Shown: positions 6,570-61,192 of the stretch, piece by piece
How positions within the stretch are numbered: position 1 is the stretch's first letter
How the letters are laid out: each line of letters opens with the position of its first letter
Virus record (IMG/VR): IMGVR_UViG_3300010397_000042
Location: 25,012-89,011 of that record
Origin: a virus
Strand: one strand, 5' to 3'
DNA length: 64,000 bases
Position numbers and translations under genes: made by a program
The notes under the pieces: generated by a model
Told to the model about the DNA's origin: nothing
The model's database searches: none
What the model saw: only the letters and a program-made list of their open reading frames with translations

Positions 6570-6583
6570 TGATACACTCTAAG
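6570..6583 (+). promoter_or_regulatory. Extended -10/operator element
   Basis: TGATACACTCTAAG: TGn-extended -10 TACACT fused to core ACTCTAAG, at the junction of two genes. It immediately precedes the AAGGA ribosome site of the next gene. Confidence 0.5.
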
Positions 6584-13992: not shown

Positions 13993-14021
13993 ACTATAGC
14001 ACGTTATTCAGAGTGTGTCAA
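13993..14021 (-). promoter_or_regulatory. Leaderless-type promoter with operator core
   Basis: Read leftward: TTGACA (14021-14016), spacer of 17 beginning CACTCTGAA, extended -10 TGCTATAGT (-10 at 13998-13993). ATG follows after 5 bases. The -35 contains the TGA stop of the gene upstream. Confidence 0.8.
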
Positions 14022-17542: not shown

Positions 17543-17571
17543 ACTATAGCTCGGACCTCAGAGTCTGTCAA
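17543..17571 (-). promoter_or_regulatory. Leaderless-type promoter with operator core
   Basis: Leftward TTGACA, 17-base spacer starting GACTCTGAGG, TATAGT. ATG 17536 follows after 6 bases. The -35 overlaps the RadC-like gene's TGA. Confidence 0.8.
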
Positions 17572-19269: not shown

Positions 19270-19568
19270 GATTCCTCTATCAAATCAGCCCAATCGATTC
19301 CTTCGTGGATCAGTTGGGCCGTTTGGGGTTCAAGAATAGTGATCGCATCGAGTAGCAGACCGATAGGACCGCGCGAGTCGACCTTGTGACCACTATATAA
19401 CCATACGATCTTGAGAAGAGTTTGCACCGCGTCATACCGAATCGATGCATTAGTTATTAGTTCGGTCTCGGTCGCCTTCACACGCGCTGCTAACTCGCGT
19501 ACCGCTTTCCTACGATCCACGTCACTAAAGGCGTGGACCATGCATAAAACTTCGTCCGATAGACTCAT
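19266..19568 (-). CDS. Hypothetical helical protein
   Basis: 100 residues, mainly amphipathic helices. Lies between the VWA-like gene and the Cys-rich gene in one coupled chain. No family recognised. Confidence 0.6.
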   Translation of the reverse strand: MSLSDEVLCMVHAFSDVDRRKAVRELAARVKATETELITNASIRYDAVQTLLKIVWLYSGHKVDSRGPIGLLLDAITILEPQTAQLIHEGIDWADLIEES

Positions 19569-20365: not shown

Positions 20366-20602
20366 TTAGGTGTAGCTCGATTCTGAGAGTATGTCAAACG
20401 GTTTTTTGAGAGCGCGCGCCATATCTCGCGCTTCCCACCGTGTGCCGTAGTACCAGAACGATGGGGCCTCCATTTGCGACGATTGCCACTGCACGCACCA
20501 TGCATGCTTGCCGCGTTCGATGTAGCTGCGGTGCGTACGGCTATCCGTGAGAAGGATCCCCCAATGGGATCGTGGATTGATCTTGCGAACAATAGCTTTC
20601 AT
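20366..20602 (-). CDS. Small hypothetical protein containing a promoter in its 3' end
   Basis: 78 residues, basic with several Trp and Tyr. The C-terminal codons (KKPFDILSESSYT) read through the TTGACA-17-TACACC promoter of the VWA-like gene, so gene end and promoter are merged. A second frame (20359-20592) is the shadow. Confidence 0.55.
   Translation of the reverse strand: MKAIVRKINPRSHWGILLTDSRTHRSYIERGKHAWCVQWQSSQMEAPSFWYYGTRWEARDMARALKKPFDILSESSYT
20369..20397 (-). promoter_or_regulatory. Leaderless-type promoter with operator core
   Basis: Leftward TTGACA, 17-base spacer starting TACTCTCAGA, TACACC. ATG 20362 follows after 6 bases. Confidence 0.7.
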
Positions 20603-21768: not shown

Positions 21769-21797
21769 TGTGTAGCGCGAATCTAAGAGTCTGTCAA
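21769..21797 (-). promoter_or_regulatory. Promoter with operator core, leadered
   Basis: Leftward TTGACA, 17-base spacer starting GACTCTTAGA, TACACA. The next start (21726) is 42 bases away with a normal ribosome site, so this is one of the few units that is not leaderless. Confidence 0.7.
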
Positions 21798-22262: not shown

Positions 22263-22276
22263 CTCTGAGTCTATCA
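22263..22276 (-). promoter_or_regulatory. Extended -10/operator-like element
   Basis: Leftward TGATAGACTCAGAG: TGn-extended -10 TAGACT fused to a core variant. It contains the TGA stop of the gene upstream and lies just before the 13-bp hairpin. Confidence 0.4.
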
Positions 22277-22479: not shown

Positions 22480-22682
22480 CGGGGTGTTGGGAGTATGGTG
22501 CTGTTCTCAGAGTCTGTCAATCTGTTTTTATCCGCCAGCGCGACGATCGCGATTGGGTTGTGCATGCGAGCGCGATACCAGCGGATGAAATGCTCATGAC
22601 ACCGCCTGCATTGGAGCACGGTCGGTGTCACCTGATGACCCGTTGCCGGATGCGCAGGTCCGCCGCAGAAAAAACAGCTCAT
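22476..22682 (-). CDS. Small zinc-ribbon protein
   Basis: 68 residues from ATG at 22682 with GGAGG 4 bases upstream. CFFCGGPAHP...CRRCHEHF is a four-Cys ribbon as in HNH-like or recombination helper proteins. Its last codons (NRLTDSENSTILP) run through a promoter. Confidence 0.65.
   Translation of the reverse strand: MSCFFCGGPAHPATGHQVTPTVLQCRRCHEHFIRWYRARMHNPIAIVALADKNRLTDSENSTILPTPR
22492..22520 (-). promoter_or_regulatory. Promoter with operator core, inside a coding end
   Basis: Leftward TTGACA, 17-base spacer starting GACTCTGAGA, CATACT. The micropeptide ATG (22479) follows after 12 bases: a leader of only about 5 bases. Confidence 0.7.
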
Positions 22683-22888
22683 GATACCTCCACATTGAAC
22701 CATGCCGCATCGGTGCTCATGACGCGCGAGATGATGCGGGCGTACTGACTGCGATCCATCTCACGGCCGATCGTGAGTGAGAACATCTCGCACACACGAC
22801 GGGCCGTTGCGATACGAGACTTCGTGGTCTCGATCGTAAACTTGTGTGCACCTTGTGTCGTGAGGATCGTGACGTTCCGGGTAGCCAT
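22679..22888 (-). CDS. Small hypothetical protein
   Basis: 69 residues, beta then basic helix (NVTILTTQGAHKFTIET; ATARRVCEMF). Start codon 6 bases after a -10 box: leaderless. No family recognised. Confidence 0.65.
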   Translation of the reverse strand: MATRNVTILTTQGAHKFTIETTKSRIATARRVCEMFSLTIGREMDRSQYARIISRVMSTDAAWFNVEVS

Positions 22889-22894
22889 GACCAG

Positions 22895-22923
22895 AGTATG
22901 GCCGCTACCTCAGAGTCTGTCAA
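22895..22923 (-). promoter_or_regulatory. Leaderless-type promoter with operator core
   Basis: Leftward TTGACA, 17-base spacer starting GACTCTGAGG, CATACT. ATG 22888 follows after 6 bases. The -35 includes a TGA that ends the upstream frame. Confidence 0.8.
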
Positions 22924-23039: not shown

Positions 23040-23269
23040 CTTGATTTTCCTAGGGTTAGATTGTTGCGATTCGTTTCAATTTGAAGCGCGCCCAATTTCG
23101 TGAGTCGTAAGACCACGTGGCCTTGATTCGACGCAACCGAGATCCACCGCTGTTTGATTGCTTCCCAATAGAGAGCGAGCTGGTCAGGCGAGTCAATTCG
23201 AAGCTCAGTGATCACACGTTCGAGCACTGCTATCTGTTGCCGTAGATCGGCTATCGTCTGGCGACTCAT
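23036..23269 (-). CDS. Small helical hypothetical protein
   Basis: 77 residues from ATG at 23269 (MSRQTIADLRQQIAVLERVI), overlapping the stop upstream. N-terminal coiled coil. The longer frame to 23392 is shadow. Confidence 0.6.
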   Translation of the reverse strand: MSRQTIADLRQQIAVLERVITELRIDSPDQLALYWEAIKQRWISVASNQGHVVLRLTKLGALQIETNRNNLTLGKSR

Positions 23270-23571
23270 AGCTCGTCCACCAAAGAGCGGAGATCTTCCT
23301 TGCTCATTTGCTCCAGGATGCGCCGTAGCGTCCGTTTGACACCTGCAACGTACGTAGACCTCCCGTTGTGCATCGATGCCGTGCGGCGCCACGTGCGATC
23401 GTTCGTCTGGTCGGGATCGCGCTCGAGACGAGCTTCCGGGTAGTCCCGGTACCAGCGTTTGAGGTACGGGCCGTATAGACTCTCGTGGTAGTCGAATGCT
23501 GGATGAGTCGTGACCATACGTCCGATGATTTGGAAACCATGCTTGACGAGAAAGTATGTAATGTCTGACAT
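23266..23571 (-). CDS. Hypothetical protein
   Basis: 101 residues; aromatic N-terminal half (ESLYGPYLKRWYRDYPEARL), basic C-terminus. First gene leftward of the divergence region; ATG 7 bases after a -10 box, so leaderless. No family recognised. Confidence 0.65.
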   Translation of the reverse strand: MSDITYFLVKHGFQIIGRMVTTHPAFDYHESLYGPYLKRWYRDYPEARLERDPDQTNDRTWRRTASMHNGRSTYVAGVKRTLRRILEQMSKEDLRSLVDEL

Positions 23572-23578
23572 GACCTAT

Positions 23579-23607
23579 AGTGTAGCAGAAAGCTTGTAGT
23601 ATGTCAA
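23579..23607 (-). promoter_or_regulatory. Leaderless-type promoter, divergent core
   Basis: Leftward TTGACA, 17-base spacer starting TACTACAAGC (weakest core match), extended -10 TGCTACACT. ATG 23571 after 7 bases. Leftmost promoter of the divergence region. Confidence 0.7.
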
Positions 23608-23914: not shown

Positions 23915-23943
23915 TGGACACACTCTAAGATCCGATCCATACT
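23915..23943 (+). promoter_or_regulatory. Leaderless-type promoter with operator core
   Basis: TGGACA, 17-base spacer starting CACTCTAAGA, CATACT (23938-23943). ATG 23950 follows after 6 bases. Confidence 0.75.
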
Positions 23944-23949
23944 ATCAGC

Positions 23950-24096
23950 ATGTACACGCTCAACAATCAAAACACGTTCGGCAGCTTCTCTGATGCAATC
24001 GAGGCCTCGCGCGACTTGCGCGACGCTGGTTATCGCGGGGTCATTGTGATCCACGACGAGAATGGCGAAGTCTGTTACTACCACGCCGCGCTGTAA
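23950..24096 (+). CDS. Small hypothetical protein, 48 residues
   Basis: Begins MYTLNNQNTFGSFSDAIEAS, ends in a short strand with two Tyr-His pairs. No ribosome site; the start is at the predicted transcription start. No family recognised. Confidence 0.65.
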   Translation: MYTLNNQNTFGSFSDAIEASRDLRDAGYRGVIVIHDENGEVCYYHAAL

Positions 24097-24253: not shown

Positions 24254-24283
24254 TCGACACACTCTAAGAAATCGAGTCATGCT
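24254..24283 (+). promoter_or_regulatory. Leaderless-type promoter with operator core
   Basis: TCGACA, 18-base spacer starting CACTCTAAGA, CATGCT (24278-24283). ATG 24290 after 6 bases. Confidence 0.65.
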
Positions 24284-24289
24284 CTAGTT

Positions 24290-24487
24290 ATGTACACGGT
24301 CATCATCATCCACGCACCGATCCTCGGTAACTACAGCGCTAGCAACGTGCTCTGCTACGTCCGTTCGCGCAAGGCAGCGGACAAGATGGTGCGCGAGCTT
24401 AGCGCTAAGAACGCGGGCAACGGTTACGTCGCAGGCTACATGTTTTGCGAGGGAAAGCTCGCAAGTACGATTTCTCAGATTTCTTGA
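24290..24487 (+). CDS. Small hypothetical protein
   Basis: 65 residues (MYTVIIIHAPILGNYSASNV start), alpha/beta with a basic middle. Leaderless by position. Second rightward unit of this region. No family recognised. Confidence 0.65.
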   Translation: MYTVIIIHAPILGNYSASNVLCYVRSRKAADKMVRELSAKNAGNGYVAGYMFCEGKLASTISQIS

Positions 24488-24516
24488 TTGACATACTCTG
24501 AGGCCCACGCTATAGT
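24488..24516 (+). promoter_or_regulatory. Leaderless-type promoter with operator core, best consensus
   Basis: TTGACA (24488-24493), 17-base spacer starting TACTCTGAGG, TATAGT (24511-24516). ATG 24523 after 6 bases. Confidence 0.85.
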
Positions 24517-24522
24517 CTACTC

Positions 24523-24681
24523 ATGTTCGACGCCGCAAAAAAGCACGATGCCCGACGCGCCGAAGTCTACGCGCGTTTGCTCGCCGCTACGGCCGCTCTT
24601 GAGGCCTCGATCGCAACGTCCGTCAAGTACGTCAGCACCACGGCCGACACCACGGCCGCCACTGTTCGCCCCTCGCGCTGA
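24523..24681 (+). CDS. Small Ala/Thr-rich protein, 52 residues
   Basis: From ATG 24523 (leaderless) to TGA 24679-24681. Begins MFDAAKKHDARRAEVYARLL, a helix, then a Thr/Ala tail. No family recognised. Confidence 0.65.
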   Translation: MFDAAKKHDARRAEVYARLLAATAALEASIATSVKYVSTTADTTAATVRPSR

Positions 24682-24692
24682 TACACTCTAAG
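24679..24692 (+). promoter_or_regulatory. Extended -10/operator element
   Basis: TGATACACTCTAAG, identical to the element at 6570-6583, overlapping the stop of the upstream gene and 16 bases before ATG 24708. Confidence 0.55.
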
Positions 24693-24707: not shown

Positions 24708-25043
24708 ATGGTCACCCTATCGTTCATTGTACTCGCGCTGTTCCCCATCGTGCTCCCGTCGGTACTTGCCCTCGTTGGGCTCGTCCTGCTCGTGTGCGTC
24801 CCCACGCGCTCGTTTGAGCGTGAGGAGACTGCTCTGTACGTTGCCGAACAAGCGGCACTCTGGTCGGCCGTACGGGACGCGTACAATGCGGATGCGTTAG
24901 AGCTTGGGCTCGCTGTCGTGGAAGCGCAGCACACACCTGTACCTACAGAGCCTACCATGGCGGATGCGCTCTTCGCTGGGATGGCGGTTTACAGTAGGAT
25001 TAGAACTTCTAATGTCACTGTAATCGATGAGTCGAGGGCCTGA
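24708..25043 (+). CDS. Small membrane protein
   Basis: 111 residues. N-terminal long hydrophobic segment (about 4-32) then a soluble helical domain and a short C-terminal tail. AAGAAAGG lies 11 bases before ATG. Last rightward gene before the convergent hairpins. No family recognised. Confidence 0.65.
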   Translation: MVTLSFIVLALFPIVLPSVLALVGLVLLVCVPTRSFEREETALYVAEQAALWSAVRDAYNADALELGLAVVEAQHTPVPTEPTMADALFAGMAVYSRIRTSNVTVIDESRA

Positions 25044-25937: not shown

Positions 25938-25966
25938 ATGGTAATAATCGAAGAGTGTGTCGTCAA
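25938..25966 (-). promoter_or_regulatory. Leaderless-type promoter, weaker match
   Basis: Leftward TTGACG, 17-base spacer starting ACACACTCTTCG, TACCAT. ATG 25931 after 6 bases. Confidence 0.55.
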
Positions 25967-28289: not shown

Positions 28290-28519
28290 GCTCGAGCCAG
28301 CCGATCGAAGTGAATTTGAGCCTCATCCAGAGCGAATTTGGCCTTCTTCAACAACTCAACTCGAAGTCGCGCCACTGCTTCCTCAGGCGAATCGGCCACG
28401 ACGACCTTGTGAACTGCCCCAGGAAGCACCGTTCCAGCACTCCACTTGCCCCCGTTGATGCAAAAAGTGACCGTACTCGCCGGAAAAGCATTCAAAATAG
28501 CCCTAATATCGTCGTTCAT
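28286..28519 (-). CDS. Small hypothetical protein
   Basis: 77 residues from ATG at 28519, coupled to the Acb2-like stop. Short beta domain (TVTFCINGGKWSAGTV), then a helix. No family recognised; lies between two predicted nucleotide-binding proteins. Confidence 0.6.
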   Translation of the reverse strand: MNDDIRAILNAFPASTVTFCINGGKWSAGTVLPGAVHKVVVADSPEEAVARLRVELLKKAKFALDEAQIHFDRLARA

Positions 28520-28725
28520 GCTTGGTACTCGGGGCACATCGACATTGCCTTCTTCGCGTAGAAGCAGGCTTCTTCCATCTTCGTTCGACAGAGACTCAGC
28601 TCCCTCGACTCCACGGTAAGAGCTCGTAGAAGTCCTTCCAGCATCAGATCGAACCCTTGTGCGATTTGCTTGGCTCGTTCTTGCCCTTGCTCATTCAACA
28701 TGTGTACTTCAAATTCCTTATTCAT
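28516..28725 (-). CDS. Probable Acb2/Tad1-hairpin type cyclic-nucleotide sponge
   Basis: 69 residues. The C-terminal half (SRELSLCRTKMEEACFYAKK) matches the helical hairpin of the Acb2/Tad1 family (R-E-x-S-L-x-x-T-K-x-E-E-A-x-x-x-A-x-K-A), and the N-terminal helix NEQGQERAKQIAQGFDLML also fits; size is typical. Acb2 binds cyclic di- and trinucleotides made by CBASS and so blocks host defence. Assignment is from remembered family pattern, without alignment. Confidence 0.72.
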   Translation of the reverse strand: MNKEFEVHMLNEQGQERAKQIAQGFDLMLEGLLRALTVESRELSLCRTKMEEACFYAKKAMSMCPEYQA

Positions 28726-32692: not shown

Positions 32693-32915
32693 CTTCCTCA
32701 GGTACACTTGGTAATCCTCGATTAGCTCGCAGGCGTCGGAGAGCTCCATGGGTATTTCGAAATGCGTGGTCTCGACCTGGCCATTCACCAAGATCTCGAA
32801 TTCCACCCTGGAAGTAGACGGCGTTTCGCCAGAACTCACCCTCCAGCCACACAAGTGCATAGTAATCTCCGTCCTCGAATTCATAGTTGCCTTCTCCGAG
32901 ACGCTTCCAGCTCAC
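32679..32915 (-). CDS. Hypothetical protein, possibly frameshifted
   Basis: 78 residues from GTG 32915 (GTGA overlap). The first 36 residues (YEFEDGDYYALVWLEGEFWR and onward to YFQ) are convincing; after the GGG at about 32807 the other frame (VEFEILVNGQVETTHFEIP) looks more natural than this one, which ends in a poly-Asp tail. Confidence 0.45.
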   Translation of the reverse strand: MSWKRLGEGNYEFEDGDYYALVWLEGEFWRNAVYFQGGIRDLGEWPGRDHAFRNTHGALRRLRANRGLPSVPEEDDDD

Positions 32916-33151
32916 TTCTCAACGAGTTCTCCACTCGGCGTCACCTTGAAGTTCGCTCGAATCTTGGCTTCGGGGATAATCGTGTATCCCATCTCGTCTT
33001 CCTCGGTCACATGGTCGATGAGCCCATCGACGTCACCAGGGACCCACTCCGGGTTCTCCTCGAGAAAGTGGTAAACGTCGTCCTCTTCCTCAGCATCGAC
33101 GAAGAAGGTCACTAAGCGCTCCATCACCATATCGACTCGGTAAGTGTTCAT
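32912..33151 (-). CDS. Hypothetical protein, first gene of the long leftward operon
   Basis: 79 residues from ATG at 33151, 7 bases after a TAGAAT -10: leaderless. Acidic (FFVDAEEEDDVYHFLEENPE). The frame open to 33187 would read through the promoter and is rejected. It opens the chain of about 25 genes ending near 25971. Confidence 0.65.
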   Translation of the reverse strand: MNTYRVDMVMERLVTFFVDAEEEDDVYHFLEENPEWVPGDVDGLIDHVTEEDEMGYTIIPEAKIRANFKVTPSGELVEK

Positions 33152-33158
33152 AGTCTGT

Positions 33159-33187
33159 ATTCTAGCACTAAACTCAGAGTGTGTCAA
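33159..33187 (-). promoter_or_regulatory. Leaderless-type promoter of the long operon
   Basis: Leftward TTGACA, 17-base spacer starting CACTCTGAGT, TAGAAT with TGC extension. Perfect core match. Confidence 0.8.
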
Positions 33188-33228: not shown

Positions 33229-33684
33229 TCAGAGGACGAAGTACCGTCCCTCGATCTTGGTGATCACGCCACGAGACTTGAGCTCATCGAGGGCCGAATA
33301 CAACCGATCGCGGTGTTGCTGGTCGTCGAGCCCGTAGAGCTTACGAACGAGCACACCGTTGTCGATGTGGCCATTGCCCTCTTTGATGGCTTGGATGATG
33401 AGTTTCTGGACACGACTCGAGCCGCGAGGCTTGTTCCTAGGGGGTCCAGCATTACGGATAAGCCCAAGGTTTTCGAGATCGTCCCAAAGATTCAAGGACT
33501 TGATCTCTCGGTTGATGGTGCTGAGGCTAACCTCGAGGGCTTCCGCAGCCTCTTCGCGGTTTCCATCATGCTTCTTCATCGTATCAAGGATGAGCTTTCG
33601 GCGCTCTTCCTCTGTGAATCTGCGTCGCATTCCACTTCCTGCGGGTTCAGATTGGAATTTCTTAGCTCCCGCCCTGTTCTTCAT
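33229..33684 (-). CDS. Fis-like HTH transcription regulator, candidate repressor
   Basis: 151 residues. Residues about 22-70 (KLILDTMKKHDGNREEAAEA, then LEVSLSTINREIK) form a Fis/NtrC-type helix-turn-helix; the C-terminal 60 residues (LIIQAIKEGNGHIDNGVLV, ALDELKSRGVITKIEG) look like a winged helix. Monocistronic, leaderless, behind a core-containing promoter and followed by a terminator. Best candidate for the protein binding the ACTCTGAG elements, but no direct proof. Confidence 0.7.
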   Translation of the reverse strand: MKNRAGAKKFQSEPAGSGMRRRFTEEERRKLILDTMKKHDGNREEAAEALEVSLSTINREIKSLNLWDDLENLGLIRNAGPPRNKPRGSSRVQKLIIQAIKEGNGHIDNGVLVRKLYGLDDQQHRDRLYSALDELKSRGVITKIEGRYFVL

Positions 33685-33691
33685 GAGCTCT

Positions 33692-33719
33692 ATTTTAGGA
33701 CAATTTGAGAGTATGTCAA
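33692..33719 (-). promoter_or_regulatory. Leaderless-type promoter of the regulator gene
   Basis: Leftward TTGACA, 16-base spacer starting TACTCTCAAA, TAAAAT. ATG 33684 after 7 bases. Suggests autoregulation. Confidence 0.75.
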
Positions 33720-34003: not shown

Positions 34004-34017
34004 TGCTATACTCTTAG
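34004..34017 (+). promoter_or_regulatory. Extended -10/operator element
   Basis: TGCTATACTCTTAG, near-identical to the element at 2157. The ribosome site AAGG (34020-34023) and GTG 34032 follow. No -35. Confidence 0.55.
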
Positions 34018-35665: not shown

Positions 35666-35858
35666 TGCTGTCGTTCCTAGTTACTGTCCTTGTGAGTTTT
35701 GTCGGATACACGGGAGTTTCAATGCCTGCTCTGTACGCGAGATGATCCTCCGGATAACGCAACTCGAGCTCGCCATCAAAGACGCCCTCAAGGCGAACTC
35801 AGTTGCCGAGTGTGCAGCGGCGTTACACATCTTCCGAATCCTGATGGAGGCACCCTGA
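35658..35858 (+). CDS. Small Cys-containing protein
   Basis: 66 residues from ATG 35658 with GAGGA 8 bases upstream. CPCEFCRIHGSFNAC could bind one metal; helical C-terminus. No family recognised. Confidence 0.6.
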   Translation: MSDAVVPSYCPCEFCRIHGSFNACSVREMILRITQLELAIKDALKANSVAECAAALHIFRILMEAP

Positions 35859-36223
35859 AACCCATCAAAGCAGCATGGCTTGCAAAACATCTTGGGATCC
35901 CAGAACGCGCAGTTCGACGGTGGGCCTCACGAGTCGGTAAACAGTTGGACGGTGCCTGGTACGTCTCGATCGACGAGCTCGCGAAGTGTGACGGCATCGG
36001 CGGACTAACTGGAGCCTTACTCCTAATGAACGGTCCGCCCCGGAAGTGGCAGGAGGCGGTGCCGCTGGTGACAGGAGCACTCGGAGTTTCCTCGAGAACC
36101 GTCGAGGAGTGGTGTCAGAATCGACAAGGATTCGCCAAGCGTCTTGGGGACGTTTGGTACATCGATCTGGAAGAGATGAAGGAAAATTGGACCAACGAGG
36201 AAGACTGTGAAACTGCTGGATAA
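35855..36223 (+). CDS. Double helix-turn-helix DNA-binding protein, unusual CTG start
   Basis: About 122 residues. Two tandem excisionase-like HTH units: AAWLAKHLGIPERAVRRWAS with YVSIDELAK, and VTGALGVSSRTVEEWCQN with YIDLEEMKE. The likely start is CTG 35855, overlapping the previous TGA with GGAGG four bases ahead; the frame open to 35699 is shadow of the gene before. May control late transcription or packaging; sits two genes ahead of the terminase. Confidence 0.6.
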   Translation: MKPIKAAWLAKHLGIPERAVRRWASRVGKQLDGAWYVSIDELAKCDGIGGLTGALLLMNGPPRKWQEAVPLVTGALGVSSRTVEEWCQNRQGFAKRLGDVWYIDLEEMKENWTNEEDCETAG

Positions 36224-36517: not shown

Positions 36518-37119
36518 AACCTAGTGAATCCCTCAAGGAACAGCGCCCTGCGCTGGTCCATAATGAGGACTTGATGCATGGGTACGACGATCGTACCCCT
36601 CTCGGCCCGCCACCCGCGAAGTACACGGCAGCGGTTCACGAGAAGATTTGTGACGAACTGAAGAAGGGTCAGAGCAAGCGGGCAGCCGCAGCTCGCGCCG
36701 GCATTACCGAGGCCACTCTACATGACTGGCTCAAGCGGGGCCGGGACGGCGATCCTCACCTCTGGCAGTTTGCCGAGGATGTCGAGATTGCCCAGCATCT
36801 GTTCGAGGCAGGAGCGGTGGAAACCATCACCGCAAGTGCTCTGAGTCAGGAACCTGACAAGCAGAGTTCCGAAGATGCGAAGTGGATGCTCGAACGCACA
36901 CGATCTGATGCGTTCTCGAAGCAGGTGAAAACCACCGTTGAAAACCAAATCAGAGACTTCATGATTAGGCTCGAGGCTGCACTCGACGAGCGCACCTTCG
37001 CCAAGGTCCTAGCTGTCTACCTGGGCCAGGCACTGCCGGCCGAGTTGGAAGTAGTAGGGATTCTGCCCGAAAATGGCAGCACGGAAGAGACAGACGAAAA
37101 CGCCGAAGAACTCGGCTGA
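36514..37119 (+). CDS. Terminase small subunit
   Basis: 201 residues from GTG 36514 (GTGA overlap). HTH near residues 50-75 (KKGQSKRAAAARAGITEATL, then HDWLKRGRDGD) is typical of small terminase subunits that bind the packaging site; the rest is helical, as for the oligomerisation region. Next to the large subunit. Confidence 0.82.
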   Translation: MKPSESLKEQRPALVHNEDLMHGYDDRTPLGPPPAKYTAAVHEKICDELKKGQSKRAAAARAGITEATLHDWLKRGRDGDPHLWQFAEDVEIAQHLFEAGAVETITASALSQEPDKQSSEDAKWMLERTRSDAFSKQVKTTVENQIRDFMIRLEAALDERTFAKVLAVYLGQALPAELEVVGILPENGSTEETDENAEELG

Positions 37120-38476
37120 GAGCGCTCTCGCTCGCTACGCAAAAGAAAGATACGCAGCATTACAGGATAAGACGAGAGGGAATCTAGCAGACCTCCCGCT
37201 CTTCGACTTCCTGACGACGACCTCGCCACATCTTTGTCGTCCGGAGCATCTGGTCTCAGTCGTTCCGTACATGGAGGCACTCGACGAGTCGCCTCAGGCC
37301 TTCGCGCTGTCGGCGCCACCGCGGCACGGTAAGAGCGTTCTGGTCAATCATCTCTGCGCTCGGCAGATGATTCGACATCCGGGACTCAAGGTCGCTTACG
37401 GGTGCTACTCTCTCGACCTCGCAGGCTTCAACAGCCTCGAAGTCAAAGACATCCTTATCGCGAACAACGTCGAGCTCGACCGGAACCAGAATTCCAAGGA
37501 AGAGTGGCGACTCGAGAACGGAAGCGTCTTCAAGTGCGTCGCCCCCGGATCAGGCTTCACGGGTCGCGGAGCAGACCTCATCATCATCGATGACCCTTAC
37601 AAGGGTCGAACCGAAGCCGAGTCAGGACGCATCCGAGATGCCACGTGGTCCTGGTTCACCGCCGTCGCTATTACGCGACGTAGTCCTAACGCTTCCGTCA
37701 TAGTCACTCACACTCGATGGACGGTTGACGATCTCATCGGAAAGGTCACCAAAGAACACGGGTGGCCCTACGTGAATCTGCAGGCCATCAATGATCAGAG
37801 CGATGCGCTCTGGCCCAACGAATGGCCGCTCGATAAGCTTCTCGAGATCAAGTCCCTCATCGGTCCTTACGAGTGGCACTCGCTCTACATGGGCGAACCC
37901 AGACCTCGTGGCGGAGCGGTGTTCGGGGATCCCAGTCCTTGCTCAAAGGAAGACTGGCCGACGGCGTTCGACAAGATCGTCATCGGAATCGACTGCGCGT
38001 ACACGAAGAAGACCCACTCAGACTGGTCAGTCGCCGTTGTACTCGGAGTCAAAGACGGTATTCACTACATCCTCGAAGTTGTTCGCAAGCAGTGCGAGGC
38101 TCCCGAGTTCGAGAGCATTCTTCGAGGTCTTCGATTCAAGTACGGCAACCCGCCGATCTACTGGTACGTGGGTGGTCAAGAAAAAGTCATCGCTGACTTC
38201 TTCATCAACCGCGGTGTTCCGGTCAAGGCGATTCCCGCCAAGGACGACAAGTTCGTTCGTGCACAAGCGGTGGCTGCAGCATGGAATGCACACCGTGTAA
38301 TGGTTCCTGCGGAAGACCAGCGATGGAGCCGCGACTTTCTTTCTGAGGTCTTATTGTTCACGGGTCTCGATGACCCTCACGACGACCAGGTTGACGCTCT
38401 CGCTTCGGCCTTCATTCCTTCGGCTTCTAAGCGCGTTGTTCGCGGCAACCTGACGACTCAGCTTCTTTCGTACTGA
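37073..38476 (+). CDS. Terminase large subunit
   Basis: 467 residues. ATPase-nuclease that pumps DNA into the capsid. Walker A-like APPRHGKS (about 80-87), Walker B LIIIDDP (about 169-175), coupling motif VIVTHTRW; nuclease acids in GIDCAYT (about 305) and HDDQVDALASAF. It overlaps the small subunit gene by 47 bases; no clear ribosome site. Confidence 0.92.
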   Translation: MAARKRQTKTPKNSAESALARYAKERYAALQDKTRGNLADLPLFDFLTTTSPHLCRPEHLVSVVPYMEALDESPQAFALSAPPRHGKSVLVNHLCARQMIRHPGLKVAYGCYSLDLAGFNSLEVKDILIANNVELDRNQNSKEEWRLENGSVFKCVAPGSGFTGRGADLIIIDDPYKGRTEAESGRIRDATWSWFTAVAITRRSPNASVIVTHTRWTVDDLIGKVTKEHGWPYVNLQAINDQSDALWPNEWPLDKLLEIKSLIGPYEWHSLYMGEPRPRGGAVFGDPSPCSKEDWPTAFDKIVIGIDCAYTKKTHSDWSVAVVLGVKDGIHYILEVVRKQCEAPEFESILRGLRFKYGNPPIYWYVGGQEKVIADFFINRGVPVKAIPAKDDKFVRAQAVAAAWNAHRVMVPAEDQRWSRDFLSEVLLFTGLDDPHDDQVDALASAFIPSASKRVVRGNLTTQLLSY

Positions 38477-38487
38477 TAGACTCTATG
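38474..38487 (+). promoter_or_regulatory. Operator-like element at the portal start
   Basis: TGATAGACTCTATG: same pattern as 24679 and 6570, with the terminase TGA at its left end and the portal ATG at its right end. As a promoter it would start downstream of the ATG, so an operator role or chance is more likely. Confidence 0.35.
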
Positions 38488-40086
38488 AAACTTGGAACAT
38501 TAGATCAGAAGCATAGCTCCTATGATGCTGATCGCTGGTGCCAAGTAGAGGCTCTTGCGAAGGGTGGCAAGAAGTTCCGAGAACATATCGGCTGCTTTCT
38601 TCCGCAGAACCCTGTCGAGCCGGAAGAGATCTACTTCCAACGACGATCGCAGGCTCACTACCGATCGTACATGGGAAGTATTATCAACCTGTATGTAGGT
38701 TGGCTCTTTGCTTCCTCGTTTAGCGTCAAGCCCTACGAGCGTGGAACCGAGACTCCCGTCGCGGAAGTCGACAAGTTCTACGGCTTCTTTCAAGAAGACG
38801 TGGGTAACGAGACTCAGCTCAATGCGTTCATGCAGGAGCGCTTTCGAGGCGCCCTGACGAATCACAAATCGTACTGGCTGATCGAGTTGCCCAGCAACGA
38901 TGGTCAAGAAGCTGAGGATGCTGCGGACTACGAGCTTCGTGGTCTTGGTCGAGCAACTCTCAAGGCGATTGAACGCCATGAGATGTACGACTGGCAGGAA
39001 AACGAAGAGGGCGAGCTCCAGTGGGCAATCATCCATACGTGTTACGACGTACGCGAAAACTGGGCAGCTGATCGCGACACAACGGTCGAAACTTGGCGTG
39101 TCTACGATGACACTTACGTCTACACGTTCCAGCTGACATACAAGAAGGATGAGCGCCCGAAGGACGAGAATTTCGAAGTCCCTCAGGTCGGGGAGCCAGC
39201 AACTCACGGATTCAAGCGAGTCCCCATCGTCTGCATGCACATCCCGATGGAACTCACCATCGGCGAAGCGACATTCGATACTCAACTCGAGCATTTTCGA
39301 ATCGACAACGCGCTCTCCTGGTTGATTCGGCGTACCTGTTACGCACAACCGGTCTTCAACCTAGCCGACGGTGACGCACCCCCAAGGATGGGTGCTGGCT
39401 ACGCCATCTTGCTAGGCCCTGACGACAAGATTGGTTGGACGTCTCCCCCCGTTGCTCCATTCGATGTTCTTCAGAGCAACCTCGATAACAAGAGAGATGA
39501 GATCTACCGCATCGTCCACCAGATGGCTCAGGGGATGGACAACAACGCGGAGACGGTAGGACGTTCGGCAGACAGCAAAGAGATCGATGCTGCGGCCACA
39601 CGAATCATGCTCAACACGTACGGTGGATTCGTTAGCAAGACTATCGAAGAAACCTACGAGTTGATTAGCGAAGCACGCGGTGAGAAGAACTACGAATGGA
39701 GCGTAGAAGGCTTCTCCGGATACGACACAGCAACGGTGTCGACCCTCATCGCGAACGCAGGTCTCGCACGAGAGTTGGGAATTCCTAGCCAGACATTCCA
39801 AAAAGAGTTGTGTACGAAAGTAGCACTGGCGCTTCATCCCGAAGCTGACCAGCGCGTCAAGGACACCATCCGAGACGAGATCAACAACGCTAAGTTTGTC
39901 GTGAGTAGTACTCCGGCGAGCTCGCTGTTGGACGACGCTCAAACCGCGAAGGCTGAACTTGATCGAGCGAAGGCTGCCTCCGAGCCAGTCAAAGCCAAAG
40001 CGGCAATGACTACGGCTAATGCGTCTATGACGACGGCAAAGAAGCCTACGCCCAAGCCCGCATCACGACCTGGATCTCCCAGGTAA
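38485..40086 (+). CDS. Portal protein
   Basis: 533 residues. Follows the terminase and resembles DUF4055-like portal proteins (YFQRRSQAHYRSYMGSIINL, WSVEGFSGYD, ATRIMLNTYGGFVSKTIEET). Forms the dodecameric ring at the capsid vertex. Long Lys/Ala/Thr-rich C-terminal tail (about 480-533). No ribosome site precedes ATG 38485. Confidence 0.85.
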   Translation: MKLGTLDQKHSSYDADRWCQVEALAKGGKKFREHIGCFLPQNPVEPEEIYFQRRSQAHYRSYMGSIINLYVGWLFASSFSVKPYERGTETPVAEVDKFYGFFQEDVGNETQLNAFMQERFRGALTNHKSYWLIELPSNDGQEAEDAADYELRGLGRATLKAIERHEMYDWQENEEGELQWAIIHTCYDVRENWAADRDTTVETWRVYDDTYVYTFQLTYKKDERPKDENFEVPQVGEPATHGFKRVPIVCMHIPMELTIGEATFDTQLEHFRIDNALSWLIRRTCYAQPVFNLADGDAPPRMGAGYAILLGPDDKIGWTSPPVAPFDVLQSNLDNKRDEIYRIVHQMAQGMDNNAETVGRSADSKEIDAAATRIMLNTYGGFVSKTIEETYELISEARGEKNYEWSVEGFSGYDTATVSTLIANAGLARELGIPSQTFQKELCTKVALALHPEADQRVKDTIRDEINNAKFVVSSTPASSLLDDAQTAKAELDRAKAASEPVKAKAAMTTANASMTTAKKPTPKPASRPGSPR

Positions 40087-40110
40087 AACCAGCACACGGC
40101 GCACTGGTTT
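40086..40110 (+). terminator. Hairpin after the portal gene
   Basis: AAACCAG...CTGGTTT, 7-bp stem, 11-base loop, no T-run. Possible attenuator or mRNA processing site. Confidence 0.35.
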
Positions 40111-40165
40111 CAAAGCGCTGCACCTCAATCGGTAGTCCACGGCGGACAACCGAAAAGGAGTTCAC

Positions 40166-40894
40166 ATGCCGAACGAGAACGACGACGGCTCGCAGAATCC
40201 GTCAGAACCTAGATACGTTACCGAAGATCAAATCGGTAATATCGTAAACTCCGCTCTTACTGCACGCTTTCCAAAGCTGCTTGGTCCGGCACTCGATGCT
40301 GCGCTCAAGCCGATTCTGGACAAGCTGAGTGCCCCTCCGCCAGCACCTCCGTCTGATGACGAGGGAACGACGAAGAAGGGAAAGCAAAACCCCGAGCTTC
40401 TTGCCATGGCGCAGAAACTCGAGGAGATGCAAAAGGAACTGAAAGTACGCGACGAACGCGTAGCCGCGGCCGAAAAGAAAGGTCGTGAAGACAAGGCATT
40501 TGCAGATTTGCGTGCCGGTCTCGAAGGCAAGGTTCGACCCGAGCTGCTTGGCATGCTCGTCGAAAACCTCTTTCACGTTCAGAAGCGAGTCGAATTCGAC
40601 GACCAGGGAACACCGCTCTTCAAGACGAGTCGAGTGCCGTATACCGGCGCAGACCCCGAAGAGTTGAGACTTCCTCTCGGTGCTGGAGTCGAGGACTTCC
40701 TCAAGAGCGAAGCCGCCAAACCATTTTTGCCCGCACCTAATCCTGGTGCTGGAGCAGGCCCACTTCCGAAACGCGGTCCATCTCCCAATCCGGGGGGAAC
40801 CGACTTTTCAAAACCCGCCACGACCGAAGCCGAAAAGACTCGTCGCGCAATGGAGCGCGAACGAATCGCAAAAGAACGACTCGGTCAACGATAA
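40166..40894 (+). CDS. Capsid scaffolding protein
   Basis: 242 residues between portal and capsid. Coiled coil at about 80-125 (MAQKLEEMQKELKVRDERVA), Pro/Gly-rich C-terminus, basic end: classic scaffold composition. AAAAGGAG precedes ATG 40166. No protease domain seen. Confidence 0.75.
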   Translation: MPNENDDGSQNPSEPRYVTEDQIGNIVNSALTARFPKLLGPALDAALKPILDKLSAPPPAPPSDDEGTTKKGKQNPELLAMAQKLEEMQKELKVRDERVAAAEKKGREDKAFADLRAGLEGKVRPELLGMLVENLFHVQKRVEFDDQGTPLFKTSRVPYTGADPEELRLPLGAGVEDFLKSEAAKPFLPAPNPGAGAGPLPKRGPSPNPGGTDFSKPATTEAEKTRRAMERERIAKERLGQR

Positions 40895-40897
40895 TTC

Positions 40898-40912
40898 GGG
40901 GTCTCAAACCCC
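40898..40912 (+). other. Hairpin before the capsid gene
   Basis: GGGGT-ctcaa-ACCCC; a second palindrome CCCATATGGG follows at 40921-40930. They sit in the 55-base gap before the capsid gene, which has no recognisable ribosome site. Confidence 0.4.
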
Positions 40913-40949
40913 ATAACAACACCCATATGGGGATTACCTAACTTATAAA

Positions 40950-41984
40950 ATGAGTACTGATTCCGTTACCACGCTTTCTTTGGTTACGCTCGCCCAGGAG
41001 TACCGCGGCGATGTCGTCAAGCAGATCAACCGTACCTGTGCGTCTCTGCGGATGCTCCGGATCGTTCCCGGTGCCGGCAAGAACATTGCCTGGGCACCCG
41101 AGGGCGACGGTGCGCTCGCTGAGAACTACAACGAGGGTGACGACGCTGAGAACTTCGCGCAGGACTCGCAGGCAGCTGCGTATCTTCCGTGGGGACTCTA
41201 TCGGTCGAACATCCACATCACGTCGCTCGCGATGGACGGTGCCGTCACGACGATGACGCCAGAGGGCAACCGCCAGCTCTGGGCGCGCGCGGTCACGAAC
41301 AACTCCGCGAAGCTCGCTAGCAAGATCAACTTGGAGTGCTTCGTGGGCCCCGGTACCGGGACGCGCATGGCGGGTCTCGAGGTTGCCATCGCTGACGACA
41401 ACACGTACGCCACGATGGACCGCACCAGCACGGACCCCGACCTGTCGTACTTCCAGTCGACGGTTGTGGATCCCGGTTCGGACACGCAGATCAGCTTCAA
41501 GCTGATTCGTGACGACCTCCGCAAGATCTTCGAGAAGTGCGGTATGCAGCCTGACATGGCGCCATGCAGTCCGGCGGTCTTCGCCGAGATTGGTGCGCTG
41601 TTCGATAACACGCGGCGTCAGGTTCAGTCGGTGACTGGTCCGCGCGGCGAGATCACGCTCGACTTCGGCTTCCAGGCTCTCGAGGTTGACGGCTGCGTCT
41701 TCTATCGCGACAAGGACTGCACGGCGAAAGCGGTTTACTACCTCAACAGCGCGCATGTTGAGATCCAGTACCTCCCGAGCGCATCGCAAGCGATGCTGAT
41801 CGAGGCGGCTGGTGGTGAGGTCACGGCGGACGACGGCTTCGGCTCGGTTCCCCTCGGCTTCAAGTACGAGATGCTCGCAAAGACGGGCCCCTCCGAGAAG
41901 GCTGAGATCCTCTGGACGGGTAACCTCGTGGTTGACCGCCCGAACACCTGCGGCAAGCGCCTTCACGTTGCGGTGGCGAGCTAA
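40950..41984 (+). CDS. Major capsid protein
   Basis: 344 residues; HK97-fold capsid by position and composition: starts TTLSLVTLAQEYRGDVV, spine and P-domain with many Ala/Val, and closing LWTGNLVVDRPNTCGK. Codon use is visibly G/C-ending and strongly biased, as for a highly expressed gene. No Shine-Dalgarno before ATG 40950 (sequence ACTTATAAA). Confidence 0.85.
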   Translation: MSTDSVTTLSLVTLAQEYRGDVVKQINRTCASLRMLRIVPGAGKNIAWAPEGDGALAENYNEGDDAENFAQDSQAAAYLPWGLYRSNIHITSLAMDGAVTTMTPEGNRQLWARAVTNNSAKLASKINLECFVGPGTGTRMAGLEVAIADDNTYATMDRTSTDPDLSYFQSTVVDPGSDTQISFKLIRDDLRKIFEKCGMQPDMAPCSPAVFAEIGALFDNTRRQVQSVTGPRGEITLDFGFQALEVDGCVFYRDKDCTAKAVYYLNSAHVEIQYLPSASQAMLIEAAGGEVTADDGFGSVPLGFKYEMLAKTGPSEKAEILWTGNLVVDRPNTCGKRLHVAVAS

Positions 41985-41989
41985 TTCAC

Positions 41990-42568
41990 ATGGCAACTGT
42001 TATCCGTAACACTGCGCCCGAGCTGACTCAGCTTGCGGACGCACACAATCAGATGAAGGACAGCCTCGTCGCGGAACTCCGCGGTGTGCTGACCGACCTC
42101 GCCGCCGTTGCAGCAGACGGTGATGTCAACGTAACGACGACCTTCACCGCCTTCGGGTCGCACAACGACAAGAGCGAAGTTCTTGTCACTGGCGACGACG
42201 CAGACGGTGGTGCTGAGGACGACGGCCTCCAAGGCTGCATCGACCTCGCGAATGAGCTCAAGGCTGTCTACAACTTCCATGTTGCAGACACGCTGGCCCA
42301 CAAGGTCGCCGGTTCTCCGGTGACCACGGCAAAGGCACACGACCTCGATACGGTGAAGACGCTCGCGGCTGCGATCCGTACAGCATACGAGGCACATCGT
42401 CAGTCGACGACTTACCACTATGTGGCGGACTCGACGAACACGATCTCGGCTTCCTCGACGTCGACGCTCGCTGATGTGGTCACTCTCGTGAACGAGCTCA
42501 AGGCAGATCTCAATGCTCACATGGGCTCAGGTCCAACCATGAAGTCCATTCGATTGGTGGGTGCCTAA
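41990..42568 (+). CDS. Probable capsid decoration / head fibre-like protein
   Basis: 192 residues with three repeats of a helix type: LANELKAVYNFHVADTLAHK, IRTAYEAHRQSTTYHYVADS, VNELKADLNAHMGSGP. Ends IRLVGA. Such ELKADLNAHxxS repeats occur in structural proteins after the capsid gene in related phages. Role inferred from position. Confidence 0.6.
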   Translation: MATVIRNTAPELTQLADAHNQMKDSLVAELRGVLTDLAAVAADGDVNVTTTFTAFGSHNDKSEVLVTGDDADGGAEDDGLQGCIDLANELKAVYNFHVADTLAHKVAGSPVTTAKAHDLDTVKTLAAAIRTAYEAHRQSTTYHYVADSTNTISASSTSTLADVVTLVNELKADLNAHMGSGPTMKSIRLVGA

Positions 42569-42783
42569 TGGATAACCAAGCTCGTCTCGACTTCATCTTC
42601 GACGCGGTCGATGCTCTCGAACTCGAGGAAGATGAGAAGACCGCCCTGATGTACGTTCTGAGCTCGATCCCGAGTGTCTCGATCGACGTCGATGGTGTGA
42701 TGTCGTTCACCGACGCTGCCATCGCGGTCTGTCCCGACCTCTCGTCGACGTCCCAGACCATGCCCATCTTCACAGGCGGTTGA
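42568..42783 (+). CDS. Small acidic protein
   Basis: 71 residues, helical (FIFDAVDALELEEDEKTALM). Starts at the base where the previous stop ends; its own stop is inside the -35 of the HNH promoter. May be a head protein. Confidence 0.6.
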   Translation: MDNQARLDFIFDAVDALELEEDEKTALMYVLSSIPSVSIDVDGVMSFTDAAIAVCPDLSSTSQTMPIFTGG

Positions 42784-42808
42784 CACACTCTGAGTAACGG
42801 GTTATACT
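42780..42808 (+). promoter_or_regulatory. Leaderless-type promoter with operator core
   Basis: TTGACA (42780-42785), 17-base spacer starting CACTCTGAGT, TATACT (42803-42808). GTG 42815 follows after 6 bases. Only early-type promoter inside the structural region. Confidence 0.85.
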
Positions 42809-42814
42809 TATAGT

Positions 42815-43432
42815 GTGACCCTTACCTGTCCTATTTGTAGTGCTCAATTTGAGCGTGGCTTCAAAGCCTATCGCCAAAAATATTGTTGTCGATGTGGTCC
42901 TAAAAAGCGTGCCATCGATGAGTCTTGTTATCATCAAACTCATCGACAAGAAGCAAACCTAAGGGCGACTCAATGGCGAGACGCTAATCCAGAACGCTAC
43001 AAAACTGGACAAAAAGATTACTATCTGCGTTCAAAAGGCACGATAGCGGAACGTGCCCGTGAATGGCAGAGACACGAAAGAAATTGGGCAGGCAATCTTT
43101 GCAAGAATGCCAAATCAAGATCGAAGCGTGACAACTGTCCCTTCGATCTTGACCCTGAATTTCTAAGACAACTGTTTGAGAATCAAAATGGTATTTGTTA
43201 CTGGACCGGATTGCGGATGGTCCCTTCGAGGGAACCCAATGGTCCATGCAAGCCATCGATTGACAAACTGTCTCCAGAACATGGTTACACAAAAGGAAAT
43301 ATCGTACTAACCACGTGGTTCGCTAATCGAGCCCGAAATAATCTTCCGGTTGAGCAATTCCGCTCGCTTCTCCGGGAGCTTAGAGGGGCACTAGCAAATC
43401 ATGTTTACAGAGATGGAGAAGGCCCAAATTAG
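42815..43432 (+). CDS. HNH homing endonuclease-like protein
   Basis: 205 residues from a leaderless GTG. N-terminal zinc ribbon CPICSAQF...CCRCG, charged linker, then an HNH-like core: FENQNGICYWTG, PSIDKLSPEHGYTKGNI and VLTTWFANRARNNL. The DNA is A/T-richer than its neighbours and interrupts the head gene order, so this looks like a mobile freestanding endonuclease that cuts related phage genomes. Confidence 0.82.
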   Translation: MTLTCPICSAQFERGFKAYRQKYCCRCGPKKRAIDESCYHQTHRQEANLRATQWRDANPERYKTGQKDYYLRSKGTIAERAREWQRHERNWAGNLCKNAKSRSKRDNCPFDLDPEFLRQLFENQNGICYWTGLRMVPSREPNGPCKPSIDKLSPEHGYTKGNIVLTTWFANRARNNLPVEQFRSLLRELRGALANHVYRDGEGPN

Positions 43433-43802
43433 GCTATATTTGGGATATCCTGATCATTTTAGATATCGCCACACGCGACTCGAAAGCGTGCTTACCCGAC
43501 TCTCTCCCGAGTCGGAAGTTCTGGTTCAGAAGGCACTTGAAAATCTCGCTACAATCGAGAGTACGCTTCTCACCGCCGGTGGAGACGAAGCAGGCGTCAA
43601 ACGAGTCGATGAGATCTGGTTTGACAACGGCTGGCGACGAGCATCCGAGATCCGAAAGTCCGGACGAATGTACGTCACCAGAATCAGCATTATCACCGGT
43701 GTCCCAATCTACTCAGACGTCTTCGGACGGTCGGGATACCTCGGTGACAGTTTCACCAACGGCGGTTCGCGATACGGCGATGGATTCTTTGGCCTTGGAT
43801 GA
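43401..43802 (+). CDS. Head-completion/adaptor-like protein
   Basis: 133 residues; MEKAQIRLYLGYPDHFRYRH start and a Gly/Phe-rich end. Sits where head-tail adaptors lie. Overlaps the HNH gene by 32 bases, so the endonuclease arrived very near this gene's start. Confidence 0.6.
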   Translation: MFTEMEKAQIRLYLGYPDHFRYRHTRLESVLTRLSPESEVLVQKALENLATIESTLLTAGGDEAGVKRVDEIWFDNGWRRASEIRKSGRMYVTRISIITGVPIYSDVFGRSGYLGDSFTNGGSRYGDGFFGLG

Positions 43803-44239
43803 GCATTCGAACATCTCTGATCAAACTGGTAGATCGCTATCGAGCACTCACCGGACCTGACCATTTCGACCTTCGAACGAATCAGCTCACAATCCGCACT
43901 CGTAGATGGAGCGGTGGTCAGGTCGAGCTCGGCGATCCTATCGATTCCGATCTCGTCCTTCCTGCGATTTATCCGGTTAGGTATCTGACAGCCCATGAGT
44001 TGCGAACCGCTGCTGGTCGTTATGAGCTTGTCGATATTCTTGTTGATCACATCACTCCTTCGGATGGCAACGGCACGGGTTACACGCAAGAGCAACTCTA
44101 CCCGACGGTAACAGATAACGGGACCGAGATTATCTACATCCTGACCGGAACCCATGCAGGTGAATACCGATGCATGGATATCCGGACTTATCGGCCGTTT
44201 ACGTACCAGCTCGTCATTCGTCGTAGAGACCTCTCGTGA
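43799..44239 (+). CDS. Head-tail connector-like protein
   Basis: 146 residues, beta-rich; ATGA overlap upstream, GTGA downstream. Length and position fit a head-closure (stopper) protein; no decisive motif. Confidence 0.6.
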   Translation: MSIRTSLIKLVDRYRALTGPDHFDLRTNQLTIRTRRWSGGQVELGDPIDSDLVLPAIYPVRYLTAHELRTAAGRYELVDILVDHITPSDGNGTGYTQEQLYPTVTDNGTEIIYILTGTHAGEYRCMDIRTYRPFTYQLVIRRRDLS

Positions 44240-44844
44240 GCGAAAATAATATTCGCTGCACTCTTGAGGAACTTCCGAAACTGATTCAACAGCGTCTAGA
44301 CAACATTCAAAAGGCGGTGAATGTTGGGATGCGCTGGACAGCCGAGGATGCTGTTCCAATTGTTTCCGAAGCAGCTCCTAAAGCGTTTGGAGATCTTCGG
44401 GACTCGGTTCACGCGGTCCCGGGAGCTGTCCCAAAGCTTGTAGTCGATGCTCCACATGCAGCGGCCGTTGAGGTTGGTAGCTCTCCGCACACACCGGATA
44501 TCGAAGCTCTGATCGCTTGGGTGAAGCTTCGAGGTATGCAGTACCAGCGCGGACTGAACAAGATCAGTTCTCGTCGAGATGGGCCGACTACAAAGTATCA
44601 AGCGGCCAAAATAGGACGACAGCTCAACGCGAAAGTCATCAGGGCTTTCAATCTGGACGGAGTCGGTCCTGGCGGCGGTAAGGGACGTGTAAGTCCGATC
44701 GACGCGCCAACGGAATTAGCTCTCGAGATTGCCCATGCCATAGAAACCTATGGCACTCCGCCACACTGGTTCGTCCGAGGTTCATTACCTGCAATTGCGA
44801 AGATTCTCGATCGCGACATTCGTAAAGCACTGAAAGCCCTGTAA
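44236..44844 (+). CDS. HK97 gp10-like tail-completion protein
   Basis: 202 residues. The VDAPHAAAVEVGSSPHTP segment near residue 75 is the hallmark of HK97-gp10-like proteins. GTG start coupled to the upstream stop. Confidence 0.75.
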   Translation: MSENNIRCTLEELPKLIQQRLDNIQKAVNVGMRWTAEDAVPIVSEAAPKAFGDLRDSVHAVPGAVPKLVVDAPHAAAVEVGSSPHTPDIEALIAWVKLRGMQYQRGLNKISSRRDGPTTKYQAAKIGRQLNAKVIRAFNLDGVGPGGGKGRVSPIDAPTELALEIAHAIETYGTPPHWFVRGSLPAIAKILDRDIRKALKAL

Positions 44845-45485: not shown

Positions 45486-45488
45486 AGA

Positions 45489-61178: not shown

Positions 61179-61192
61179 TAATAGACTCTTAG
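61179..61192 (+). promoter_or_regulatory. Operator-like element before the fibre gene
   Basis: TAATAGACTCTTAG, core variant in the 19-base gap ahead of ATG 61198, which has no ribosome site. Confidence 0.35.

What the first reader, a model, noticed from the sequence alone, without database searches (positions are those of the whole stretch)
33229..33684. Candidate master regulator of the ACTCTGAG elements
A Fis-like HTH protein with a C-terminal winged-helix-like part is encoded alone, behind its own core-bearing leaderless promoter and ahead of a terminator, at the junction of the two large opposing gene blocks. This is where a phage switch regulator would sit, and its promoter carries the same operator (autoregulation). 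No other clear HTH candidate lies beside such a promoter.
Basis: inference. Interest (0 to 1): 0.7.

Follow-up and report, generated by a model that had tools for sequence, protein, structure and literature searches.

The report
Candidate repressor of dispersed phage stop-sites
A phage from an uncultivated lineage carries about 29 copies of one short, directional DNA sign, in its strong early promoters and in the gaps between genes, and a small two-domain DNA-binding protein with its own sign-bearing promoter is the best candidate for the repressor that reads them, in the manner of the mycobacteriophage 'stoperator' system but with an unrelated protein.

Summary
ORF 33229-33684 (minus strand, 151 aa) has a Fis-type HTH (Pfam HTH_8, E 1.2e-6). 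It is monocistronic: a perfect TTGACA/TAAAAT leaderless promoter, a terminator 5 bp past the stop, at the junction of two divergent blocks. Its promoter carries the core as a weaker variant (ACTCTCAA, 16-bp spacer).

It is an asymmetric 13-mer, GAYAnACTCTnAG. The 89-kb contig has 30 copies at <=1 mismatch (2.7 expected); 29 are intergenic or at gene edges and 28 point with transcription. About 17 lie in sigma70-type promoters, spanning the -35 and spacer; others sit in short gaps, often on the upstream stop codon. This is the layout of cluster A mycobacteriophage operators and stoperators; Bxb1, run as a control, gave 33 sites, 32 co-oriented. The gene is not related by sequence to those repressors.

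Best reading: a phage repressor network converging on the stoperator plan, with gene 33229-33684 as probable repressor. New variant of a known kind.

The parts
33229..33684 (-). Candidate repressor gene (gene 114 of my call), 151 aa: Fis-type HTH about residues 26-66, basic linker, winged-helix-like C-terminus about 88-151
33692..33719 (-). Own promoter TTGACA-16-TAAAAT, leaderless; carries degenerate site GACATACTCTCAA (13-mer at 33705-33717)
   Evidence: leave-one-out score
33204..33223 (-). Intrinsic terminator after the candidate gene
33159..33187 (-). Site-bearing promoter TTGACACACTCTGAG...TAGAAT for the leftward operon beginning with gene 32912-33151
13993..14021 (-). Site-bearing promoter (glycosyltransferase gene 12890-13987)
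17543..17571 (-). Site-bearing leaderless promoter (gene 17306-17536)
20369..20397 (-). Site-bearing leaderless promoter (gene 19565-20362, DUF7192)
21769..21797 (-). Site-bearing promoter, weak -10 (gene 20665-21726, AAA ATPase related)
22492..22520 (-). Site-bearing promoter, -10 CATACT
22895..22923 (-). Site-bearing leaderless promoter (gene 22679-22888)
23579..23607 (-). Divergent copy TTGACATACTACAAG in a leaderless promoter (gene 23266-23571)
23915..23943 (+). Site-bearing promoter TGGACA...CATACT (gene 23950-24096)
24254..24282 (+). Site with weak promoter TCGACA (gene 24290-24487)
24488..24516 (+). Site-bearing leaderless promoter (gene 24523-24681)
42780..42808 (+). Site-bearing promoter of an HNH/endonuclease VII gene inserted in the structural block
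   Evidence: the gene is absent from relative L111
2158..2170 (+). Junction site overlapping an extended -10 (TGCTATACTCTGAG) before the RNA ligase gene
6571..6583 (+). Stoperator-like site GATACACTCTAAG just after an upstream stop codon, no -10
22263..22275 (-). Stoperator-like site, 1 mismatch
24680..24692 (+). Stoperator-like site GATACACTCTAAG on the stop codon of gene 24523-24681
25949..25961 (-). Site GACACACTCTTCG, 1 mismatch, before a small lipoprotein-like ORF
34005..34017 (+). Junction site overlapping an extended -10 (TGTGCTATACTCTTAG) at the head of the rightward late block
38475..38487 (+). Doubtful stoperator-like site at the TerL/portal junction; not conserved in relative L111
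49525..49537 (+). Stoperator-like site, perfect 13-mer GACACACTCTGAG between two late genes, no -10
61180..61192 (+). Stoperator-like site AATAGACTCTTAG between two late genes, 1 mismatch
35810..36223 (+). Rival regulator: protein with two HTH segments (HTH_17 at residues 91-126, HTH_28/HTH_23 at 22-49), in the late block without a site-bearing promoter

Best explanation
The ACTCTGAG elements are copies of one asymmetric site, TTGACAnACTCTnAG in promoters and GAYAnACTCTnAG elsewhere, read by a phage-encoded repressor. The protein at 33229-33684 is the most likely reader: its Fis-type HTH and its winged-helix-like domain would contact the two halves of the site in adjacent major grooves. At promoters it would cover the -35 hexamer and the spacer and exclude RNA polymerase from otherwise strong consensus promoters. 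At gene junctions the same site, pointing with transcription, would act as a roadblock to elongating polymerase. A weaker copy in its own promoter would let it limit its own level while it stays expressed in the lysogen. Shown: the site set, its orientation and location bias, the gene's HTH, promoter and terminator, and genes of a temperate phage. Inferred: that this protein binds the site, that its C-terminus is a second DNA-binding domain, that binding represses, and that junction sites stop elongation.
For: Site set: 30 copies at <=1 mismatch in 89 kb against 2.7 expected, 29 intergenic or at an edge (intergenic DNA is 14% of the contig), 28 co-oriented. With the stricter class-I consensus: 24 against 1.5, 23 intergenic or edge, 21 of them co-oriented, P 3e-5. 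Phage-specific: the strict promoter form has 3 hits in about 257 Gb of genomes but 4 in this contig. Repression rather than activation: the -35 is perfect TTGACA with 17-bp spacing and near-consensus -10, needing no activator, and the site covers it. Non-promoter copies at gene junctions. The cluster A control Bxb1 gives the same picture, 33 sites and 32 co-oriented; cluster A phages have 20-30 repressor sites oriented with transcription and one upstream of the repressor gene (PMC6550527), and their repressor is a monomer with two DNA-binding domains on an asymmetric site (PMC9283540). Candidate: Fis HTH, own promoter and terminator, own site, no HTH in nine other site-adjacent products. Temperate: integrase, excisionase-like HTH.
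Against: Nothing ties this protein physically or phylogenetically to the site: no homologue in phages, IMG/VR or genomes. Its own copy is among the weaker ones. The C-terminal domain assignment rests on sub-threshold hits. A tandem-HTH protein at 35810-36223 exists. The structural relative L111 (about 60% identity) lacks the 38475 site. Few sites lie inside the long leftward operon 25.4-33.2 kb.
Confidence: 0.5

Rival explanations
1. The network is real but another phage protein reads it, most plausibly the tandem-HTH protein at 35810-36223 or an unrecognised small protein; the gene at 33229-33684 is merely one of the regulated genes (for example a Cro-like or early-to-late switch factor).
For: 35810-36223 has two HTH segments in one chain, also suited to an asymmetric site. 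The site before 33229-33684 is the kind found before many unrelated genes, so its presence alone does not mark the regulator.
Against: 35810-36223 lies inside the late block near the terminase genes with no site-bearing promoter of its own, a poor place for a lysogeny repressor; its second HTH resembles excisionases.
Confidence: 0.27
2. The ACTCTGAG box is an extended promoter element read by RNA polymerase itself, a host sigma factor or a phage sigma/appropriator protein, with no repressor involved.
For: Most copies sit at a fixed place in TTGACA/TATAAT-type promoters, and nearly all perfect promoters of this contig carry it.
Against: Copies without a -10 occur at gene junctions; the hexamers are already consensus; the strict element is almost absent from about 85,000 genomes, so it is not a general host promoter part unless the host is missing.
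Confidence: 0.13
3. The box is the target of an activator that turns on the early genes (MotA-like or MerR-like), and the 33229-33684 protein is that activator.
For: Position between -35 and -10 is where some activators act (general knowledge); the gene is isolated and could be made first.
Against: Promoters are near consensus and need no help; junction copies without -10 have no role for an activator; the site overlaps TTGACA.
Confidence: 0.1

Closest known systems
Cluster A mycobacteriophage immunity repressors and their operators/stoperators (L5 gp71, Bxb1 gp69, TipsytheTRex; phrog_357)
   Same: 20-30 asymmetric about 13-bp sites across the genome, pointing with transcription, in promoters (overlapping a TTGAC -35) and in short intergenic gaps or gene ends; small two-domain DNA-binding protein; a copy upstream of the repressor gene in L5-type phages.
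   Different: Site sequence differs (here GAYAnACTCTnAG; Bxb1 CTTGAHHCGTAAC on the same strand); no sequence or profile relation between the proteins; here about 17 sites are in promoters, mostly leaderless, whereas most cluster A sites are not promoter-associated (PMC6550527); myovirus-type structural genes.
Phage P1 C1 repressor and its dispersed operators
   Same: 22 asymmetric 17-bp operators dispersed over the genome under one repressor (PMC8546580).
   Different: Different site (ATTGCTCTAATAAATTT); relation of the proteins not tested.
Bacillus phage SPbeta master repressor MrpR and the SPBRE
   Same: A repeated 15-bp element at several intergenic regions read by one master repressor, predicted from sequence long before the protein was identified (PMC10516654).
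   Different: MrpR has a tyrosine-recombinase fold; this is a small HTH protein.
Streptomyces R4/phiScoe repressor-stoperator system and T1/Stevie co-oriented repeats
   Same: Stoperator-type, intergenic repeats outside mycobacteriophages, co-oriented in T1/Stevie (PMC10276819, PMC4319613).
   Different: Different phages and hosts; T1/Stevie are lytic and the role of their repeats is unknown; the R4 repressor was not compared directly.

Membership tests
Cluster A-type immunity repressor (phrog_357 / L5 gp71 family) | Protein related by sequence to L5 gp71 / Bxb1 gp69 | tested here: not met
   BLASTP no alignment; hhalign against a six-member repressor profile 1.4% probability, HTH only; no phrog_357/20159/3929 hit among those listed to E 1, where Bxb1 gp69 hits phrog_357 at 4e-86
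Cluster A-type immunity repressor (phrog_357 / L5 gp71 family) | N-terminal HTH plus second DNA-binding (Stoperator) domain | tested here: inconclusive
Stoperator-type site network (works like, not descent) | Many asymmetric about 13-bp sites, far above chance | tested here: met
   30 against 2.7 expected
Stoperator-type site network (works like, not descent) | Sites oriented with transcription and intergenic or at gene ends | tested here: met
   28 of 30 co-oriented, 29 of 30 intergenic or edge; Bxb1 control 32 of 33 co-oriented
Stoperator-type site network (works like, not descent) | Sites both in promoters and away from promoters | tested here: met
   about 17 promoter sites; at least six junction sites without a -10
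Stoperator-type site network (works like, not descent) | Repressor binding blocks initiation and elongation | not testable with these tools
   needs gel shift and reporter assays
Fis / NtrC-type HTH (Pfam HTH_8) | Profile match above the curated cut-off | tested here: met
   28.5 bits against 22
Fis nucleoid protein | Full-length Fis match with its N-terminal dimerisation part | tested here: not met
   only the HTH, residues 29-59, matches; the rest does not
Terminase small subunit | TerS profile match and place before TerL | tested here: not met
   weak phrog_4044 only (E 0.0045); the real TerS is 36574-37119 (phrog_4102 E 6e-18)

The most novel reading that the evidence does not exclude
A stoperator-type silencing system that arose independently of the cluster A lineage: a new class of two-domain (Fis-type HTH plus winged helix) phage repressor that binds about 29 directional sites, blocks about 17 mostly leaderless promoters and road-blocks elongation at gene junctions, in an orphan large temperate myovirus.
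Probability: 0.4. Interest if true: 0.65.

Novelty: new variant of a known kind. Interest (0 to 1): 0.5.

Why it matters
Repressor-dependent blocking of elongation at dispersed, directional sites has been characterised mainly in one family of actinobacteriophage repressors. A second, unrelated protein family working on the same plan would show that the plan evolves repeatedly, explain why some phages of other lineages carry directional intergenic repeats, and give a fresh model for how one small protein silences a whole prophage. The site set also gives a ready map of the promoters of an otherwise poorly annotatable phage.

Tried and rejected
Homologues of the protein: tblastn in phages at E 1e-5 and E 10, pattern scans of IMG/VR and genomes, local tblastn on 92 loci: none. 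Near DNA relatives: none. The motif in other viruses: seven single hits, looking like chance; no matrix hits in TerL-related loci. Sister phages through TerL, MCP, primase-helicase, portal and sheath: only L111, 7.5 kb, is a true relative (45-65% identity, same gene order) but without sites; it lacks the HNH gene that carries the 42780 promoter, so it cannot test co-occurrence. MW202476 (MCP 36%) has no matching promoters. L5 stoperator in the window: no match with fewer than 2 mismatches and only a slight excess. Palindrome ACTC-T-GAGT: rejected as the whole site, because position 12 varies while its dyad partner does not. L5 and several other cluster A accessions were not in the collection, so Bxb1 served as the control. 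The host could not be identified.

Full report
What the window is. The window is bases 25012-89011 of an 89,011-base IMG/VR virus record. It encodes a terminase, portal, major head protein and tail sheath (37073-46973), a primase-helicase and ribonucleotide reductase, and, to the left of the window, DNA polymerase, an integrase, an excisionase-like HTH protein and a complete tmRNA. It is therefore a contractile-tailed, probably temperate phage. No near DNA relative exists in the phage collection; the head protein finds one record at 36% identity, and the sheath finds one 7.5-kb IMG/VR contig at 60%.

The gene. The ORF at 33229-33684 lies on the minus strand and encodes 151 residues. Residues 29-59 match Pfam HTH_8, the Fis family, above the curated cut-off; the best solved structures by sequence are NtrC-family HTHs, at insignificant E-values. 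The C-terminal 60 residues look like a winged helix to the eye and give weak hits (TrmB, phrog_4278), so a second DNA-binding domain is likely but not proven. The gene has its own promoter (33719-33692) and a terminator (33223-33204), and is the first leftward gene at the divergence from the rightward late block.

The element. Thirteen promoter copies align as TTGACA-n-ACTCT-n-AG-n8-TATAcT. Outside promoters TTGACA is not required: the shared part is GAYAnACTCTnAG. In the contig there are 30 such sites at one mismatch or less against 2.7 expected from first-order shuffles; 29 are wholly or partly intergenic although intergenic DNA is only 14% of the contig; 28 point the same way as the next gene. 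One of the two exceptions (24680) precedes a small plus-strand ORF that my gene caller missed (24708-25043); the other (45481) looks like chance. With a consensus taken only from the promoter class, 24 sites are found against 1.5 expected, 8 of the 23 intergenic or edge ones without TTGACA. In half of the 30 sites the upstream gene's stop codon lies within about five bases of the site, and in about nine the TGA inside TTGACA or TGATA is that stop codon.

Asymmetry. The inner CTC-T-GAG looks like a short palindrome, but position 12 takes all four bases while its dyad partner is almost fixed, and the strongly conserved GACA end has no mirror image. The site is directional.

Specificity. The strict promoter form occurs three times, once per contig, in 84,980 species genomes and seven times singly in IMG/VR with a slightly looser pattern, against four in this contig. 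It is a property of this phage, not a general promoter type.

Comparison. The layout matches operators and stoperators of cluster A mycobacteriophages: 20-30 asymmetric sites oriented with transcription, some in promoters, most in intergenic gaps, with one in front of the repressor gene (PMC6550527), read by a monomer with two DNA-binding domains (PMC9283540). As a control I ran the same count on Bxb1 with its site, whose consensus I recalled from memory and which the count itself bears out: 33 sites, 0.2 expected, 32 co-oriented, many directly after stop codons. The candidate protein, however, is not related to those repressors: no BLASTP alignment, no profile match, no shared PHROG among listed hits. 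So it may work like them, but it is not a member. P1 C1 (22 asymmetric operators, PMC8546580), SPbeta MrpR/SPBRE (PMC10516654) and the Streptomyces R4 system (PMC10276819) show that one repressor on many dispersed sites is a recurrent plan.

Mechanism. The promoters have perfect -35 hexamers and near-consensus -10 hexamers at 17 bp, so they should be strong without help; a protein on GACAnACTCTnAG would cover the -35 and spacer. That argues for repression. Junction copies without a -10, pointing with transcription, argue for a second role as elongation roadblocks, as proposed for cluster A. This part is inference.

For: it is the only HTH gene found with its own promoter, terminator and a copy of the site; nine other site-adjacent products tested singly gave no HTH; the leave-one-out score of its own site is 20.5 bits, unmatched in shuffles; its weaker copy would suit autoregulation. 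Against: site-bearing promoters precede many genes, so possession of one is weak evidence; a tandem-HTH protein lies at 35810-36223; no relative could be found for a co-variation test. The relative L111 covers only structural genes; it lacks the HNH gene and its promoter, and lacks the 38475 site, which I therefore mark doubtful. I put the joint claim at about 0.5.

Verdict.

Noticed in passing
L010:2701-3044 (contig 14701-15044, minus), left of the window: A complete phage-encoded tmRNA (Rfam RF00023, 103.5 bits; tag ANDNAIPELQAAA) lies beside the integrase and excisionase-like genes; it may mark the attachment site or replace the host ssrA.
   Followed up: partly
28516-28725 (minus): A 69-aa protein matches Pfam Acb2_Tad1_hairpin (E 2.3e-6, just above cut-off): a possible cyclic-nucleotide sponge against CBASS or Thoeris defence.
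   Followed up: partly
35810-36223 (plus): A protein with two HTH segments (HTH_17-type and HTH_28/23-type) a little upstream of the terminase genes; a rival regulator.
   Followed up: partly
2158-2170 and 34005-34017 (plus): Two copies share TGCTATACTCTnAG, the site overlapping an extended -10 instead of a -35, before the RNA ligase gene and at the head of the late block; possibly a second promoter class.
   Followed up: no
L006 and L007 (IMG/VR contigs): These carry a different repeated promoter box, TTGACAAACTGGTAAAA, in the same place next to the -35: perhaps another dispersed-operator phage.
   Followed up: no
L010:2400-2640, beside the tmRNA: Two stretches resembling tRNA 3' halves (GGTTCGAGTCC...) that ARAGORN did not call as tRNAs.
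   Followed up: no
42815-43432 (plus): An HNH/endonuclease VII gene with its own site-bearing promoter is inserted in the structural block and absent from the syntenic relative L111: a moron that carries the operator with it.
   Followed up: partly
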